NCBI GenBank assembly: GCA_025963775.1
Contig: JAOQAD010000037.1
Location: 127,638-191,637, forward strand
DNA: 64,000 bases
From: Bacteroidota bacterium
Lineage (GTDB): Bacteria; Bacteroidota; Bacteroidia; 2-12-FULL-35-15
Direction: 5' to 3'
Part shown: positions 3,301 through 9,703 of the stretch, one piece after another
How the letters are laid out: the number at the start of each line of letters is the position of its first letter
Numbering within the stretch: the stretch's first letter is position 1
Notes under the pieces: generated by a model
Told to the model about the DNA's origin: nothing
Databases searched by the model: none
What the model saw: only the letters and a program-made list of their open reading frames with translations
Program-made: the position numbers and the translations under genes

Positions 3301-5448
3301 ATGAAGAAGATATACACCCTGATCGCTGCCCTTTTTATTGCCGGGGCCGGAATTGCAGATGAAGGCATGTGGCTTCCTGCGCTTTTAAAGAACAACTATG
3401 AGCAGATGCAGAAGCTCGGCTTAAAGCTTACTGCCGAGCAATTGTATGATGTGAACCACAGCAGCCTCAAGGATGCGGTAGTATGGTTCAACGGCGGATG
3501 CACCTCGGAGATCATTTCCGACCAGGGATTGCTGCTTACCAACCACCACTGCGGCTATGAGGCCATTGCCAATCACAGCACCACTGCCAACAACATCCTC
3601 GACAATGGATTCTGGGCAAAATCATACGCAGAGGAAATGCCGAATGAAGGCATGTGGATCTCGATCCTTGTTCGCATGGAAGATGTGAGTGACCGCGTGA
3701 ACAAAGCGCTTGCAGGCCTTGATGCAAAAACAGCCGATGCAAAAAGGGCAGAGATCTTTAAAGCGATCGAACAGGAAGTGAAGAAAGAAGGCTACGATGC
3801 ACAGGTGAAATCCATGTTCAAAGACAACGCTTTTTACCTGTTTGTATTTGAAAAATTCACCGACATCCGCCTTGTTGCAGCACCGCCACAATCCATCGGG
3901 AAATTCGGTGGCGACACCGACAACTGGATGTGGCCGCGCCATACAGCAGATTTTTCCATGTTCCGCATCTATGCGAACAAAGATAACAAGCCTGCTCCGT
4001 ACTCAAGAGATAATGTGCCTTACAAGCCGAAAAAGTCGCTGCCGGTTTCCATCAAAGGATTGAATGAAGGCGATTATACAATGATCTACGGTTTCCCGGG
4101 AAGGACCAACCGCTATGAAACATCATACGGCATCCAGCTGGCGATCGACAAGATCAATCCTGCCATTGTTGCTTTGCGCGATGTGCGCTTAAATGCATGG
4201 AAAGAGGAAATGGACAAGAGTGACAGTGTACGTTTGCTGATGTCGTCACAGTTTGCAAAGATCTCCAACTACTGGAAATATTATATCGGCCAGACCGAAC
4301 AGCTGAAGCATTTAAAAGTACTGCAGGAAAAACAGGAAACTGAAAAGCAGTTTGCCGACTGGAGCAAAAACAATGCTGAGTACGCTTCCATTCTTACAAA
4401 CTTTGAGAATGCCTACAAGGATTATAACAACTATGCGCTGCACGCAACCTATTTCAGGGAAGGCGTTACAGGCTCCTCCATCATTGCCTTTGCGGCGAAT
4501 TATACCGCACTGGAAAAAGCACTGAAAGCCGATAAGCAGGATGCTGCCGAGATCAAAAAAACGGTGGATGCGATCAAAGCTGCGGAAGAGAATTTTTACA
4601 AATCATTCAATGCAAAATCGGAAGAGAAGATCCTTGCACGCTTAACACAATTATTTTACGAGAACATTCCTGCAAGCCAGCATCCGCAATACTTAACGAA
4701 CCTTGTGAAGAAAAGTAAAGGAAACAGCACAAGCGAAAAGATGGATGCCTTTGCGAAAAAAGTCTTTGAAAAAAGCTTCATGTCCTCAAAGGAAAAAACA
4801 GACAAGTTCCTTGAAAAGCCGGAGTTGAAAAAACTGGAAGCAGACCCTGCTTATGCTTATTTCAAAGCGTTCCTGGAAAACTACCTCACGAACATCAAGC
4901 CGCACATTGATGCGTTCAACGCAGTGAATGCAGCGGAAGGAAAAAAATATGTGAAGGCACTGATGGAAATGACCGGCGGAAAAAATTTCTACCCCGATGC
5001 CAACAGCACCCTGCGCCTTACTTACGGAAGCGTTAAAGCTTACCAGCCGAAAGACGGCGTGGAATACAGTTATTACACTACTTTAAGCGGTGTGATGGAA
5101 AAAGAAAATCCGGCGCAGTTTGAATTCCAGGTGCCTGCTAAATTAAAAGAGCTTTACAAAACGAAAAATTACGGGCAGTATGCAAATGCCAACGGCGACA
5201 TCAATGTGGCATTTATCAGTAACAACGACATTACCGGCGGGAACTCAGGAAGCCCTGTGATCAACGGAAACGGCGAGCTGGTTGGACTTGCATTCGACGG
5301 CAACTGGGAAGCGATGAGCGGCGATATCTATTTCGACCAGAAATACAAACGCACCATCAGCGTCGACATCCGTTACGTACTGTTCCTGATCGACAAGTTC
5401 GGCGGGGCACAAAACTTAATTGATGAGATGAAGATCGTGAAGAATTAG
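3301..5448 (+). CDS. S46 family peptidase (DPP7/DPP11 type, probably DPP7-like)
   Basis: 715 aa with signal peptide; LLTNHHCGYEAI and GGNSGSPVINGNGELVGLAFDGNWEAMSGDI; Gly in FDGNWE is the position I recall as Arg in DPP11. Confidence 0.93.
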   Translation: MKKIYTLIAALFIAGAGIADEGMWLPALLKNNYEQMQKLGLKLTAEQLYDVNHSSLKDAVVWFNGGCTSEIISDQGLLLTNHHCGYEAIANHSTTANNILDNGFWAKSYAEEMPNEGMWISILVRMEDVSDRVNKALAGLDAKTADAKRAEIFKAIEQEVKKEGYDAQVKSMFKDNAFYLFVFEKFTDIRLVAAPPQSIGKFGGDTDNWMWPRHTADFSMFRIYANKDNKPAPYSRDNVPYKPKKSLPVSIKGLNEGDYTMIYGFPGRTNRYETSYGIQLAIDKINPAIVALRDVRLNAWKEEMDKSDSVRLLMSSQFAKISNYWKYYIGQTEQLKHLKVLQEKQETEKQFADWSKNNAEYASILTNFENAYKDYNNYALHATYFREGVTGSSIIAFAANYTALEKALKADKQDAAEIKKTVDAIKAAEENFYKSFNAKSEEKILARLTQLFYENIPASQHPQYLTNLVKKSKGNSTSEKMDAFAKKVFEKSFMSSKEKTDKFLEKPELKKLEADPAYAYFKAFLENYLTNIKPHIDAFNAVNAAEGKKYVKALMEMTGGKNFYPDANSTLRLTYGSVKAYQPKDGVEYSYYTTLSGVMEKENPAQFEFQVPAKLKELYKTKNYGQYANANGDINVAFISNNDITGGNSGSPVINGNGELVGLAFDGNWEAMSGDIYFDQKYKRTISVDIRYVLFLIDKFGGAQNLIDEMKIVKN

Positions 5449-5487: not shown

Positions 5488-5523
5488 TTTAAAGCCTTGT
5501 TCAAAAATGAACAGGGCTTTAAA
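5488..5523. terminator. Hairpin terminator (bidirectional)
   Basis: TTTAAAGCCTTGTTC-AAAAAT-GAACAGGGCTTTAAA, between the S46 peptidase end and the convergent cassette end. Confidence 0.75.
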
Positions 5524-5531
5524 TTTAATAA

Positions 5532-6122
5532 CTAATTTAAATGCGTTTCAAGAAATTTTCTTAACGGTTCCAATGCAGGTGATGTCAGATCCCAATGGTC
5601 TTTTCTTAAATAATTTCTATATTTTTCATCTGCATGTTTTTCTCTTTCCTTCCTTTCCTTTTTTGAAAGTAACGAATCAACGTATGCATACACTCTGGTC
5701 TTTAAAATTGGTGGATTGAACCGATCATCTGCTTTTAAACATTCTTCAAAACTATCAAAACAATCAAAGATTACCTTATTAGATTTAGGTACCACACTTA
5801 TTAATAAGTGCTCTAAAGTTCCTGAATCTTTATTATTAGGAAAAAGGAACTGAACAAAACTAATCTTTAAGTTCCTCTTAACACTTTCTAATCTATCTAA
5901 AGTACTTTTGTGACCTTCATCTGCGTCAAAAATCAATAGATTTATACCATCATTATCTGTATTTCGCTGAAAGTCTATAATACTGTTATTAAGTGCAGCC
6001 TCATCATTACCACTCAATATTATAAAATTAGATTCATCAACACTCAAATCTAAACTTTTCAAGAAATCAATTAAAAAACGTCTATCGGCTTCGCCTTCAA
6101 CAAAGAACTTGATCTTCTTCAT
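5532..6122 (-). CDS. DUF3226 / TOPRIM-like protein, second gene of an ATPase + TOPRIM pair
   Basis: 196 aa; KFFVEGEADRRFL (Glu motif) and NLLIFDADEG (DxD motif) typical of TOPRIM-like folds; 1 nt after the stop of the upstream AAA gene. Confidence 0.8.
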   Translation of the reverse strand: MKKIKFFVEGEADRRFLIDFLKSLDLSVDESNFIILSGNDEAALNNSIIDFQRNTDNDGINLLIFDADEGHKSTLDRLESVKRNLKISFVQFLFPNNKDSGTLEHLLISVVPKSNKVIFDCFDSFEECLKADDRFNPPILKTRVYAYVDSLLSKKERKEREKHADEKYRNYLRKDHWDLTSPALEPLRKFLETHLN

Positions 6123-6123
6123 A

Positions 6124-7197
6124 TTACTTGCCTCCTCTTACCTCATTTCCCATGTTTAAAGCAGTCTCAAACTGTTCAAAATTATAGGTATATGCCTTTG
6201 TTTCTCCATTCTTAATTTTTTCAACTAAAAAATGTCTAGCATTATCTTGATTTAAAATCATGTCCTCATCTTCCAAGGCCTCTTTAAAATATTTGAGACA
6301 CTCCAAATTATGAGTTGAGGCAAATATTTGAACATCATTGTTTATAGCAGATTTTATTATCGTTTTCCAAAAACCTTTAAACCTACTATAATGAATTCCT
6401 GTATCTATTTCATCTATCATTAGTCGCTGTCCCCTCACCATTTCAATTTCAAGCAGAATTCGAAACAATTTATTAGCTCCTTCTCCAAACATGGACAATG
6501 GAATTAGTTCGTCAATATTCTTTATTCTAATATAAATTAGTGAAACGTTATTCATTTCACTTGGCACTATTTCAATGTCTTCAATTTCATTAATAAAGAA
6601 GTTTAATGAATTTAAAAACATTGATTTTGATTTTTGGCTTTTTTGTATGTTTTCAGAATAAAATCCTATTAAGTCATTCCGATAACCTGTGGTGTAAAAT
6701 ATCATAGGAGAATACGGATATTTCCCTAAACCATTAAACATCAAATCAATAGCAAAATCTTGATTATTTCTCTCTAAAATAGAAACATACCTAAGTTTGG
6801 GACTTATCAAAAGTTTATTTTTCAGCTTTTCCAATTGAGATTGTTCTAATTTATCAATTGAAGATGTTCTTAAAATAAAGCTATTCTTTTCCGCATTAAT
6901 ATATTGGGTAACATATTGTATTAAACTTGATTTTGTTTGTTTGTTAAAATAATAAGAAAGAAAATCAAATTCCTCTTTTACTGAAGTCAGGTTATTCCTT
7001 TCTGTAAATGCGTGAAAGTAATAACTATTTAGCTTTTCTAACTCTTCTGAAAACAAAAGCGCTTCTAAGATAGACGTCTTTCCAACATTATTATCTCCAG
7101 CAATCAAGTTAAATTGGCCAATATTGTTCATCTCAAAGGACTGTAAGCCCTTGAAATTCTCAATCTTAAAATACTTTAGATGTTTATTGTTATCCAT
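6124..7197 (-). CDS. AAA family ATPase (OLD/AAA_15/AAA_21-like)
   Basis: 357 aa; Walker A NLIAGDNNVGKTSILEALL; signature-like MFGEGANKLFRILLEIE; Walker B RLMIDEIDTGIHYS; H-loop IFASTHNLECL. Confidence 0.88.
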   Translation of the reverse strand: MDNNKHLKYFKIENFKGLQSFEMNNIGQFNLIAGDNNVGKTSILEALLFSEELEKLNSYYFHAFTERNNLTSVKEEFDFLSYYFNKQTKSSLIQYVTQYINAEKNSFILRTSSIDKLEQSQLEKLKNKLLISPKLRYVSILERNNQDFAIDLMFNGLGKYPYSPMIFYTTGYRNDLIGFYSENIQKSQKSKSMFLNSLNFFINEIEDIEIVPSEMNNVSLIYIRIKNIDELIPLSMFGEGANKLFRILLEIEMVRGQRLMIDEIDTGIHYSRFKGFWKTIIKSAINNDVQIFASTHNLECLKYFKEALEDEDMILNQDNARHFLVEKIKNGETKAYTYNFEQFETALNMGNEVRGGK

Positions 7198-7235
7198 ATG
7201 GATTTTTATAATTTCATATAAAGGTATAAAATTAA

Positions 7236-8921
7236 CTAAACTGTCAATTTCTTATACCTCACCCTTTTCGGCTCCACATTACCTAGTCGTTTCTTCCTGT
7301 TCTCTTCGTATTCGGAGTAACCTCCTTCAAAGTAGTACACGCTCGAATCACCTTCAAATGCAAGGATATGCGTACACACGCGATCCAGGAACCACCTGTC
7401 GTGGCTGATGATCACAGCGCAGCCTGCAAAATTTTCCAAGCCTTCCTCGAGTGCACGGAGTGTGTTTACATCCAGGTCATTGGTAGGCTCATCCAGCAGC
7501 AATACGTTGCCTTCTTCCTTCAATGCCATCGCGAGGTGCAAACGGTTGCGCTCTCCACCGGAAAGAATACCGCATTTTTTTCCCTGGTCGGATCCGGCAA
7601 AATTAAAGCGTGAAATATACGCCCTCGCATTCATTGTTTTTCCGCCAAGCATAATGTTTTCAGCTCCTCCGCTCAATACATCGTAAATTGATTTCTCAGG
7701 ATCGATGCCGGAGTGCGACTGGTCCACATACGCGATCTTCACAGTAGGCCCAACCTTGAACTCGCCTGCAGTCGGCTTTTCCTGTCCCATGATCATACGG
7801 AACAAGGTGGTTTTACCGGCACCGTTCGGCCCGATGATCCCCACAATTCCTGCAGGAGGCAATTTGAAATTCAGGTTTTCATATAATAAGCGGTCGCCAT
7901 ACGCCTTGGAAACACCCTGTGCTTCGATCACTTCATTACCCAAACGTGGCCCGTTCGGAATGTAGAGCTCCAGCTTATCTTCCATCGCCCTTGCATCTTC
8001 GCCGAGCAATTTCTCATAGTTCTGTAAACGCGCTTTTGATTTTGCCTGGCGGCCTTTTGCACCCTGGCGAACCCAATCCAGCTCGCGCATCAGCGTTTTC
8101 TGGCGCTTGCTTTCTGTCTTCTCTTCCTGTGCCAAACGCTTTTGTTTCTGGTCCAGCCATTCGGAATAATTTCCTTTCCATGGAATGCCTTCTCCCCTGT
8201 CGAGCTCAAGAATCCAGCCGGCAACGTTATCAAGGAAATAACGATCGTGGGTTACCGCGATCACTGTTCCTTTGTAATGCTGCAAATGCTGCTCCAGCCA
8301 GTCTACCGATTCCGCATCAAGGTGATTGGTCGGCTCATCCAGCAAGAGGATCTCCGGCTCCTGGATCAGCAGGCGGCACAATGCAACGCGCCTGCGCTCG
8401 CCACCGGAAAGATTTTTGATCGGGGTATCGCTTTCAGGGCAGCGCAATGCTTCCATTGCCTGCTCCAGCCGGTTATCAAGGTTCCAGAGGTCGAGCTGGT
8501 CGATCTGCTCCTGCAGGTATGCCTGGCGGTTGATCAGCTTTTCCATTTTATCCGGGTCATCGAGGTATTCCGGCTCTGCGAATTTATTGTTCACATCATC
8601 GTATTCTTTGAGGATGTTCACATGCTCCATAGCGCCTTCACGCACCACTTCCAGCACGGTTTTAGTATCATCGAGGATTGGCTCCTGCTCGAGGTAGCCC
8701 ACACGGTAGCCCGGTGAAAAATGGATCTCTCCCTGGTAATTCTTCTCGAGCCCCGCAATGATCTTCATCAGCGTGGATTTACCCGAGCCGTTCAAACCGA
8801 GGATCCCGATCTTCGCACCGTAGTAGAACGATAAATAAATATCCTTTAAAATTGTTTTGCCTGTAGGTAACGTACGACTTACGTTCACCATCGAAAAAAT
8901 TATTTGTCTGCCTTCTGACAT
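7236..8921 (-). CDS. ettA: Energy-dependent translational throttle protein EttA (ABC-F)
   Basis: 561 aa, two ABC cassettes (LGLNGSGKST, IGPNGAGKTT; LSGGERRRVALCRLL, LSGGERNRLHLAMAL), C-terminus RKKRLGNVEPKRVRYKKL. Confidence 0.95.
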   Translation of the reverse strand: MSEGRQIIFSMVNVSRTLPTGKTILKDIYLSFYYGAKIGILGLNGSGKSTLMKIIAGLEKNYQGEIHFSPGYRVGYLEQEPILDDTKTVLEVVREGAMEHVNILKEYDDVNNKFAEPEYLDDPDKMEKLINRQAYLQEQIDQLDLWNLDNRLEQAMEALRCPESDTPIKNLSGGERRRVALCRLLIQEPEILLLDEPTNHLDAESVDWLEQHLQHYKGTVIAVTHDRYFLDNVAGWILELDRGEGIPWKGNYSEWLDQKQKRLAQEEKTESKRQKTLMRELDWVRQGAKGRQAKSKARLQNYEKLLGEDARAMEDKLELYIPNGPRLGNEVIEAQGVSKAYGDRLLYENLNFKLPPAGIVGIIGPNGAGKTTLFRMIMGQEKPTAGEFKVGPTVKIAYVDQSHSGIDPEKSIYDVLSGGAENIMLGGKTMNARAYISRFNFAGSDQGKKCGILSGGERNRLHLAMALKEEGNVLLLDEPTNDLDVNTLRALEEGLENFAGCAVIISHDRWFLDRVCTHILAFEGDSSVYYFEGGYSEYEENRKKRLGNVEPKRVRYKKLTV

Positions 8922-9124: not shown

Positions 9125-9703
9125 ATGGCCAAAACCAACACTGCACTCAGTCTCCGCGATGAAACTGCAATAAACCAGATCTACTTTATCAGGGGACACA
9201 AAGTTATGCTGGACCGCGATCTTGCGAAGCTTTATGGAGTAGAAACAAAGCATCTGAAACGGCAGGTAAAGAGGAACCCGGACCGCTTTCCAGAAGACTT
9301 TATGTTTGAGCTCACAACAGAAGAATTTAAAAATTGGAGGTACCAAATTGGCACCTCTAATATTTCGGATGTAAAAGGGCTTCGTTATGCGCCCTATGCC
9401 TTTACTGAACAGGGTGTAGCGATACTATCCAGCGTTTTAAACAGCAAAAAAGCCATTTCCGTAAATATCCAGGTGATTCGTGTTTTTACCCGGATCCGCC
9501 AAATACTCCTCGATAATAGTCAACTACGCTTTACAATAGAAGAGATCAGGAAAAGCACCGAAAACAACTCTAAAAACATAAAAATTATTTTCCAGCACCT
9601 TGATGAATTGGTTGAAAAGCAGAAAATTCAAAAGGCAAGGAAACCCATCGGTTACAAGATCCCAAAGAAGAGAAAAAATAATTTTTATTTCACGGGCAGA
9701 TAA
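9125..9703 (+). CDS. ORF6N domain-containing DNA-binding protein
   Basis: 192 aa; IYFIRGHKVMLDRDLAKLYGVETKHLKRQVKRNPDRFPEDFMFELT...YAPYAFTEQGVAILSSVLNSKKAISVNIQVIRVF. Confidence 0.92.
   Translation: MAKTNTALSLRDETAINQIYFIRGHKVMLDRDLAKLYGVETKHLKRQVKRNPDRFPEDFMFELTTEEFKNWRYQIGTSNISDVKGLRYAPYAFTEQGVAILSSVLNSKKAISVNIQVIRVFTRIRQILLDNSQLRFTIEEIRKSTENNSKNIKIIFQHLDELVEKQKIQKARKPIGYKIPKKRKNNFYFTGR
9337..9357. promoter_or_regulatory. Intragenic copy of the ORF6N near-palindrome
   Basis: GAGGTACCAAATTGGCACCTC inside codons WRYQIGTS; differs from the upstream copy only at the central base. Confidence 0.55.

What the first reader, a model, noticed from the sequence alone, without database searches (positions are those of the whole stretch)
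5532..7197. AT-rich two-gene AAA ATPase + DUF3226/TOPRIM-like cassette: candidate PARIS/OLD-type anti-phage system
Seen: a 357-aa ABC/OLD-like ATPase (GDNNVGKTS, MIDEIDTG, ASTHNLE) is followed after 1 nt (TAA-T-ATG) by a 196-aa protein with the E and DxD motifs of TOPRIM-like folds. Both genes are visibly much more AT-rich than their neighbours. They lie between a housekeeping peptidase with its terminator and ettA. Known: PARIS pairs an AAA_15 ATPase (AriA) with a separate TOPRIM/DUF4435 effector (AriB), and OLD/Gabija/Ptu ATPases also work with TOPRIM or nuclease partners. Inference: this is a horizontally acquired split OLD/PARIS-like system using DUF3226 instead of DUF4435.
Basis: partly seen in the sequence, partly recalled or inferred. 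Interest (0 to 1): 0.82.

Follow-up and report, generated by a model that had tools for sequence, protein, structure and literature searches.

The report
Two-gene ATPase–TOPRIM nuclease defence-like cassette
This is a small, recently acquired pair of genes that most likely encodes an ATP-driven sensor holding back a DNA- or RNA-cutting enzyme against viruses; it belongs to the broad AbiL/PARIS/OLD kind, and its relatives sit, unusually, inside essential bacterial operons.

Summary
In detail: a 357-aa ABC-type ATPase and a 196-aa DUF3226 protein, 1 nt apart, 29% GC in 45% GC flanks. The second protein is a TOPRIM nuclease by fold (model pLDDT 92; top five PDB matches are OLD TOPRIM domains) and by a complete OLD-type active site conserved in 71 relatives. 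The pair is absent from 35 other species of the genus, and the closest one has an empty ettA–peptidase junction, so it is an insertion. The best family match is AbiL/PDC-M38 (AbiLi E=7e-48), not PARIS (AriA 1e-16; no DUF4435). Relatives almost always keep the pair together. Two things go beyond the finding. First, the two-gene cassettes are mostly not in defence islands but placed without visible scar inside core operons at clade-specific junctions: nuoE|nuoF, nuoB|nuoC, metH, ugd. Second, one clade fuses a UvrD-like helicase to the ATPase, a rearranged Gabija-like set. Most likely mechanism: ATP-gated abortive-infection nuclease (TA-like). Phage defence is inferred, not shown. Verdict: new variant of a known kind, with an interesting genomic lifestyle.

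The parts
6124..7197 (-). AbiLi/PDC-M38A-type ABC ATPase, 357 aa: Walker A GDNNVGKT, signature-like FGEG (G238, G240), Walker B/catalytic MIDEID (E263), H-loop STHN (H296)
   Evidence: Pfam AAA_15/AAA_21; PADLOC AbiLi 7e-48; residues invariant in 71 relatives; AF2 pLDDT 92.8, Foldseek PtuA/retron/OLD/GajA E 1e-11 to 1e-9
5532..6122 (-). DUF3226 TOPRIM nuclease, 196 aa; putative metal site E9, D13, D66, D68, E104 and K141
   Evidence: Pfam PF11536 1.2e-10; AF2 pLDDT 92.3; Foldseek top 5 = OLD TOPRIM domains, prob 0.89-0.98; conservation
5489..5524 (.). hairpin terminator of the peptidase, also a few nt past the DUF3226 stop; an equivalent hairpin is present at the empty site of the nearest relative
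7198..7235 (-). 38-nt gap between ettA stop and ATPase start, co-directional; no convincing own promoter
7236..8921 (-). ettA, upstream co-directional core gene
   Evidence: present in all 36 genus genomes
3301..5448 (+). S46-type peptidase, core neighbour on the other side
   Evidence: 34 of 36 genus genomes

Best explanation
The locus is a horizontally acquired two-gene ATP-gated nuclease module of the AbiL/PARIS/OLD kind. The ABC ATPase most likely forms a multimer that holds the DUF3226 TOPRIM nuclease inactive. On infection it senses a phage product or nucleic-acid state and releases or activates the nuclease. The nuclease then cuts DNA or RNA (tRNA in the case of AriB) by two-metal catalysis and stops the infected cell, i.e. 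abortive infection, which looks like a toxin-antitoxin pair in the absence of phage. Shown here: genes, fold, conserved catalytic residues, near-obligate pairing, acquisition. Inferred: gating, substrate, trigger and phage defence.
For: Pairing: 73 of 75 small proteins in A3 match DUF3226, and intact DUF3226 genes across the phylum have an ATPase upstream. Distances of the two proteins correlate (Mantel r 0.52, 0 of 2000 permutations, n=71). Active site: E9, D66, D68 and E104 in 71/71, D13 66/71, K141 67/71. These line up in order and secondary-structure position with BpOLD E400, D455, D457, E508, E404 and K562, a two-metal nuclease (PMC6755086). Foldseek top 5 are OLD TOPRIM domains, and some relatives match OLD-like_TOPRIM and DUF4435 directly. 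The ATPase keeps all ATPase residues and resembles PtuA/retron/OLD/GajA. Precedents: F. nucleatum AbiLii is toxic alone in E. coli (PMC3985639); AAA+TOPRIM pairs behaved as toxin-antitoxin in NetFlax (PMC10440598); AriB is a TOPRIM tRNase (PMC12409363). Mobility: empty site, 46 of 46 relatives AT-richer than the mean of their flanks, and the pair is the only evident cargo of ~4.2-4.7-kb Klebsiella plasmids.
Against: No phage or toxicity data for any DUF3226 member were found. Neighbours of the two-gene form are core genes rather than defence genes. In PMC3985639 AbiLi did not neutralise AbiLii. Foldseek E-values for the TOPRIM model are modest (6e-3, TM about 0.45). The correspondence of residues to BpOLD was made by motif order, not by a superposition that I could view.
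Confidence: 0.7

Rival explanations
1. A selfish toxin-antitoxin (addiction) module: the ATPase is the antitoxin, the TOPRIM the toxin, kept by post-segregational killing or by embedding in essential operons, with no selected role in phage defence.
For: Sole evident cargo of tiny plasmids; AAA+TOPRIM pairs neutralise as TA in NetFlax (PMC10440598); lodged in core operons.
Against: Rare and patchy (2 of 148 Flavobacterium; 0 of 35 genus mates), hence easily lost; related ATPase/TOPRIM pairs (PARIS, OLD, Gabija, AbiL) are antiphage.
Confidence: 0.2
2. A housekeeping accessory (repair or regulation of the host operon, e.g. complex I) rather than immunity.
For: Clade-specific placement in nuo, metH and ugd operons.
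Against: Unrelated host operons for one family; absent from most relatives; AT-rich everywhere; carried on plasmids.
Confidence: 0.07
3. A true PARIS system (AriA/AriB) with a diverged AriB.
For: Split ATPase+TOPRIM; AriA model matches at 1e-16; 7 of 75 in the family match DUF4435.
Against: AbiLi and PDC-M38A match 24-31 orders of magnitude better; no DUF4435 match in the window protein; PtuA, retron and OLD rather than AriA lead the structure list.
Confidence: 0.03

Closest known systems
AbiL (AbiLi/AbiLii) of Lactococcus, and PADLOC candidate PDC-M38
   Same: Two-gene operon, ATPase first; ATPase matches AbiLi over its full length (7e-48) and PDC-M38A (5.8e-41)
   Different: TOPRIM is DUF3226; AbiLii is described as RloB-like (PMC10440598); AbiLii/PDC-M38B models match only weakly (5e-7, 2e-6)
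PARIS (AriA/AriB)
   Same: Separate ABC ATPase and TOPRIM nuclease; same catalytic logic
   Different: TOPRIM is not DUF4435; weaker AriA match (1e-16)
OLD nucleases, class 1 and class 2 (GajA of Gabija)
   Same: ABC ATPase plus TOPRIM with E, E+4 acid, DxD, helical-domain E and K
   Different: Two chains instead of one; no helicase in the window (a fused UvrD-like helicase occurs in a sister clade)
Septu/retron PtuA ATPases
   Same: Closest solved ATPase folds
   Different: Partner is TOPRIM, not HNH; no reverse transcriptase or ncRNA

Membership tests
DUF3226 (PF11536) | HMM match above curated cut-off | tested here: met
   42 bits against cut-off 27
TOPRIM (OLD-like) nuclease | TOPRIM fold | tested here: met
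   AF2 model, Foldseek top 5 all OLD TOPRIM, though E only 6e-3; 8/75 in the family match PF20469
TOPRIM (OLD-like) nuclease | Two-metal catalytic residues E, E/D+4, DxD, E, K | tested here: met
   E9, D13, D66, D68, E104, K141 (reference residues)
TOPRIM (OLD-like) nuclease | Nuclease activity | not testable with these tools
   needs purified protein
AbiL | AbiLi-type ATPase | tested here: met
   PDLC02336 7e-48, positions 2-340 of 340
AbiL | AbiLii (RloB-like TOPRIM) partner | tested here: inconclusive
   PDLC02338 5e-7, but no RloB Pfam match, only DUF3226
AbiL | Abortive infection phenotype | not testable with these tools
   needs phage challenge
PARIS | AriA ATPase as best match | tested here: not met
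   AriA 1.2e-16 against AbiLi 7e-48
PARIS | AriB/DUF4435 TOPRIM partner | tested here: not met
   no DUF4435 match in the window protein
PARIS | Triggered by phage anti-restriction proteins | not testable with these tools
   experiment needed
OLD class 1/2 | ATPase and TOPRIM in one chain | tested here: not met
   two ORFs
Gabija | adjacent UvrD-like GajB helicase | tested here: not met
   none at the window locus; fused helicase in 16 relatives
Defence-island resident | enrichment of defence genes among neighbours | tested here: not met
   140 neighbours of relatives: complex I families lead; each of the listed PADLOC families is hit by only one protein. No matched control scan was run.

The most novel reading that the evidence does not exclude
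DUF3226 is the nuclease of a widespread class of split OLD systems whose minimal cassettes live scarlessly inside core operons (nuoE|nuoF, nuoB|nuoC, metH, ugd, and here next to ettA), borrowing the host promoter and probably spreading by recombination through the conserved flanks. A sister clade carries a UvrD-like helicase fused to the ATPase, i.e. Gabija's three modules cut at a different place.
Probability: 0.45. Interest if true: 0.7.

Novelty: new variant of a known kind. Interest (0 to 1): 0.5.

Why it matters
It gives a concrete function to an unannotated domain family (no paper in the searched open library names DUF3226) as a TOPRIM effector, and links AbiL, PARIS and Gabija through one set of modules. 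If the operon embedding holds up, defence-like genes can hide outside defence islands, where island-based searches would miss them, and a fixed core-gene junction serves as their landing site.

Tried and rejected
PARIS membership: rejected on HMM ranking and lack of DUF4435. Defence-island residence: not seen for the two-gene form. Direct sequence match to solved structures: none meaningful for the two single window proteins; a profile of 75 DUF3226 proteins finds only PH0156 (2p62, E 0.0018), and the helicase profile finds nothing below 1e-5. Single-protein scan of genome contigs with the DUF3226 protein: no relatives; the ATPase profile worked. No target-site duplication or mobility gene seen at the window junctions by eye. 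Sigma-70 promoter scan no better than shuffles. Literature searches for PDC-M38 and for defence genes in nuo or housekeeping operons found nothing relevant.

Full report
OBSERVATION. The two ORFs, their 1-nt spacing and their motifs are as described. The ATPase is AAA_15/AAA_21; the small protein is DUF3226. Cassette GC is 29.5% against about 45% in the flanks, the lowest 1.67-kb stretch in the window.

ACQUISITION. A protein search of 97 genomes, 35 of them other species of the genus, found no full relative in the genus; the weak genus hits (3e-5 or worse) look like generic ATPases. All 36 genus genomes have ettA and 34 have a peptidase hit. In the nearest relative (G010; ettA 99% and peptidase 96% identical) the genes are about 125 bp apart, with an equivalent hairpin terminator; in several other species the same slot holds unrelated genes. 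The cassette therefore lies between an ancestral terminator and ettA, in ettA's orientation, 38 nt after its stop.

TOPRIM. AlphaFold2 on 22 homologues gives pLDDT 92. The five best PDB matches are the OLD TOPRIM domains 6NK8 and 6NJV/W/X (prob 0.89-0.98, E 6e-3 to 2e-2). Of 75 proteins in alignment A3 (74 relatives and the window protein), 73 match DUF3226, 8 OLD-like_TOPRIM and 7 DUF4435. E9, D66, D68 and E104 are invariant in 71; D13 and K141 nearly so; two cysteines, C121 and C128, are also nearly invariant and unexplained. BpOLD uses E400, E404, D455, D457, T506, E508 (first helix of its helical domain) and K562 (PMC6755086). The order and the positions in secondary structure agree, E104 lying in the helix that starts at residue 103 and K141 in the helix 140-150. 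I did not view a residue-level superposition.

ATPASE. PADLOC ranks AbiLi 7e-48, PDC-M38A 6e-41, AriA 1e-16. The model (pLDDT 93) matches PtuA, retron Eco7/Eco8/Ec78, TsOLD, GajA, SMC and Rad50. Walker A, signature glycines, Walker B/E and H-loop are invariant.

PAIRING. In 396 phylum genomes 16 have DUF3226, and intact copies have an ATPase immediately upstream. Of 80 loci fetched with the ATPase, nearly all with readable downstream sequence have the small gene, usually overlapping by 1-4 nt or a few nt away. Distances correlate (Mantel r 0.52). Klebsiella ColRNAI plasmids of ~4.2-4.7 kb carry the pair beside replication genes; 144 plasmid records match that DUF3226 protein.

OPERON EMBEDDING (beyond the finding). 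The cassettes recur at core-gene junctions: nuoE|nuoF (9 loci), nuoB|nuoC (6), metH|membrane protein (6), ugd|epimerase (3), and beside pccB, an M42 peptidase and gatB. Of 49 two-gene loci, 31 have a co-directional upstream gene within 60 nt and 21 are tightly flanked on both sides; control stretches gave 40/140 and 12/120 (Fisher 3e-5 and 6e-6). Gene calls are longest-ORF heuristics, the control is small, and loci of one clade are not independent, so these p-values are indicative only. In Flavobacterium only 2 of 148 genomes carry a close relative of the nuo-embedded ATPase, and in 26 non-carriers nuoE and nuoF are 1-15 nt apart; in carriers the cassette fills exactly this gap (4 and 8 nt to its neighbours in L181). 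On the ATPase tree the insertion site clusters strongly (17 changes against 45.7 shuffled). A fixed junction with patchy presence suggests exchange through the conserved flanks, or ancestral insertion with many losses; these were not separated. The window locus fits the pattern (downstream of ettA, co-directional), but its own promoter cannot be excluded.

HELICASE FUSION (beyond the finding). Sixteen of the 80 loci have a ~1510-1980-aa ATPase with a ~1200-aa or longer N-terminal part bearing SF1 helicase motifs (GQAGSGKST, DEAQDF, AGDxxQT, NYRS, EAKGAE, VAITRA in the consensus of 15 aligned), with weak UvrD/GajB matches; they form one clade (SH-aLRT 98) and keep the DUF3226 gene. These are Gabija's modules divided differently. 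This clade usually stands apart from its neighbours (1 of 14 with a close co-directional upstream gene).

MECHANISM. See Best explanation. Shown: fold, catalytic residues, pairing, acquisition. Inferred: ATP gating, substrate, trigger, defence. TA-like behaviour is the main rival and overlaps with abortive infection.

VERDICT. Not PARIS; a split OLD system of AbiL/PDC-M38 kind with DUF3226 as the nuclease. New variant of a known kind; interest 0.5, mainly for the operon embedding and the helicase-fused clade.

Noticed in passing
L171, L178, L179, L181, L184, L185, L190, L025 (nuoE|nuoF); L123, L132, L133, L138, L146, L147 (nuoB|nuoC): ATPase+DUF3226 cassettes inserted without visible scar at tight junctions inside complex I operons, clade-specific by site.
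   Followed up: yes
L139, L141, L143, L149, L155, L157, L158, L159, L161, L163, L165, L167, L169, L170, L172, L176: Fusion of a ~1200-aa UvrD-like SF1 helicase to the AbiLi-type ATPase, followed by DUF3226; one clade.
   Followed up: partly
L126, L128, L152, L156, L160, L186: Same cassette family between metH and a conserved membrane-protein gene in Chitinophagaceae-type genomes.
   Followed up: partly
L010 and L018: Cassette next to a sucC-like gene in two different families (co-directional in L018, convergent in L010).
   Followed up: no
L194, L195: Small Klebsiella ColRNAI plasmids carry the pair as the only evident cargo; in L195 such a plasmid is integrated in a large conjugative plasmid beside Tn3/mercury genes.
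   Followed up: partly
window 5532-6122 (protein residues C121, C128): Two cysteines seven residues apart are nearly invariant in DUF3226 relatives; role unknown (metal, disulfide or structural).
   Followed up: no
window 9125-9703 (+): 192-aa protein that by eye resembles ORF6N/KilA-type phage-associated DNA-binding proteins, just beyond ettA.
   Followed up: no
L098-L112: The ettA/S46-peptidase junction holds different genes in different species of the genus: a variable slot.
   Followed up: partly
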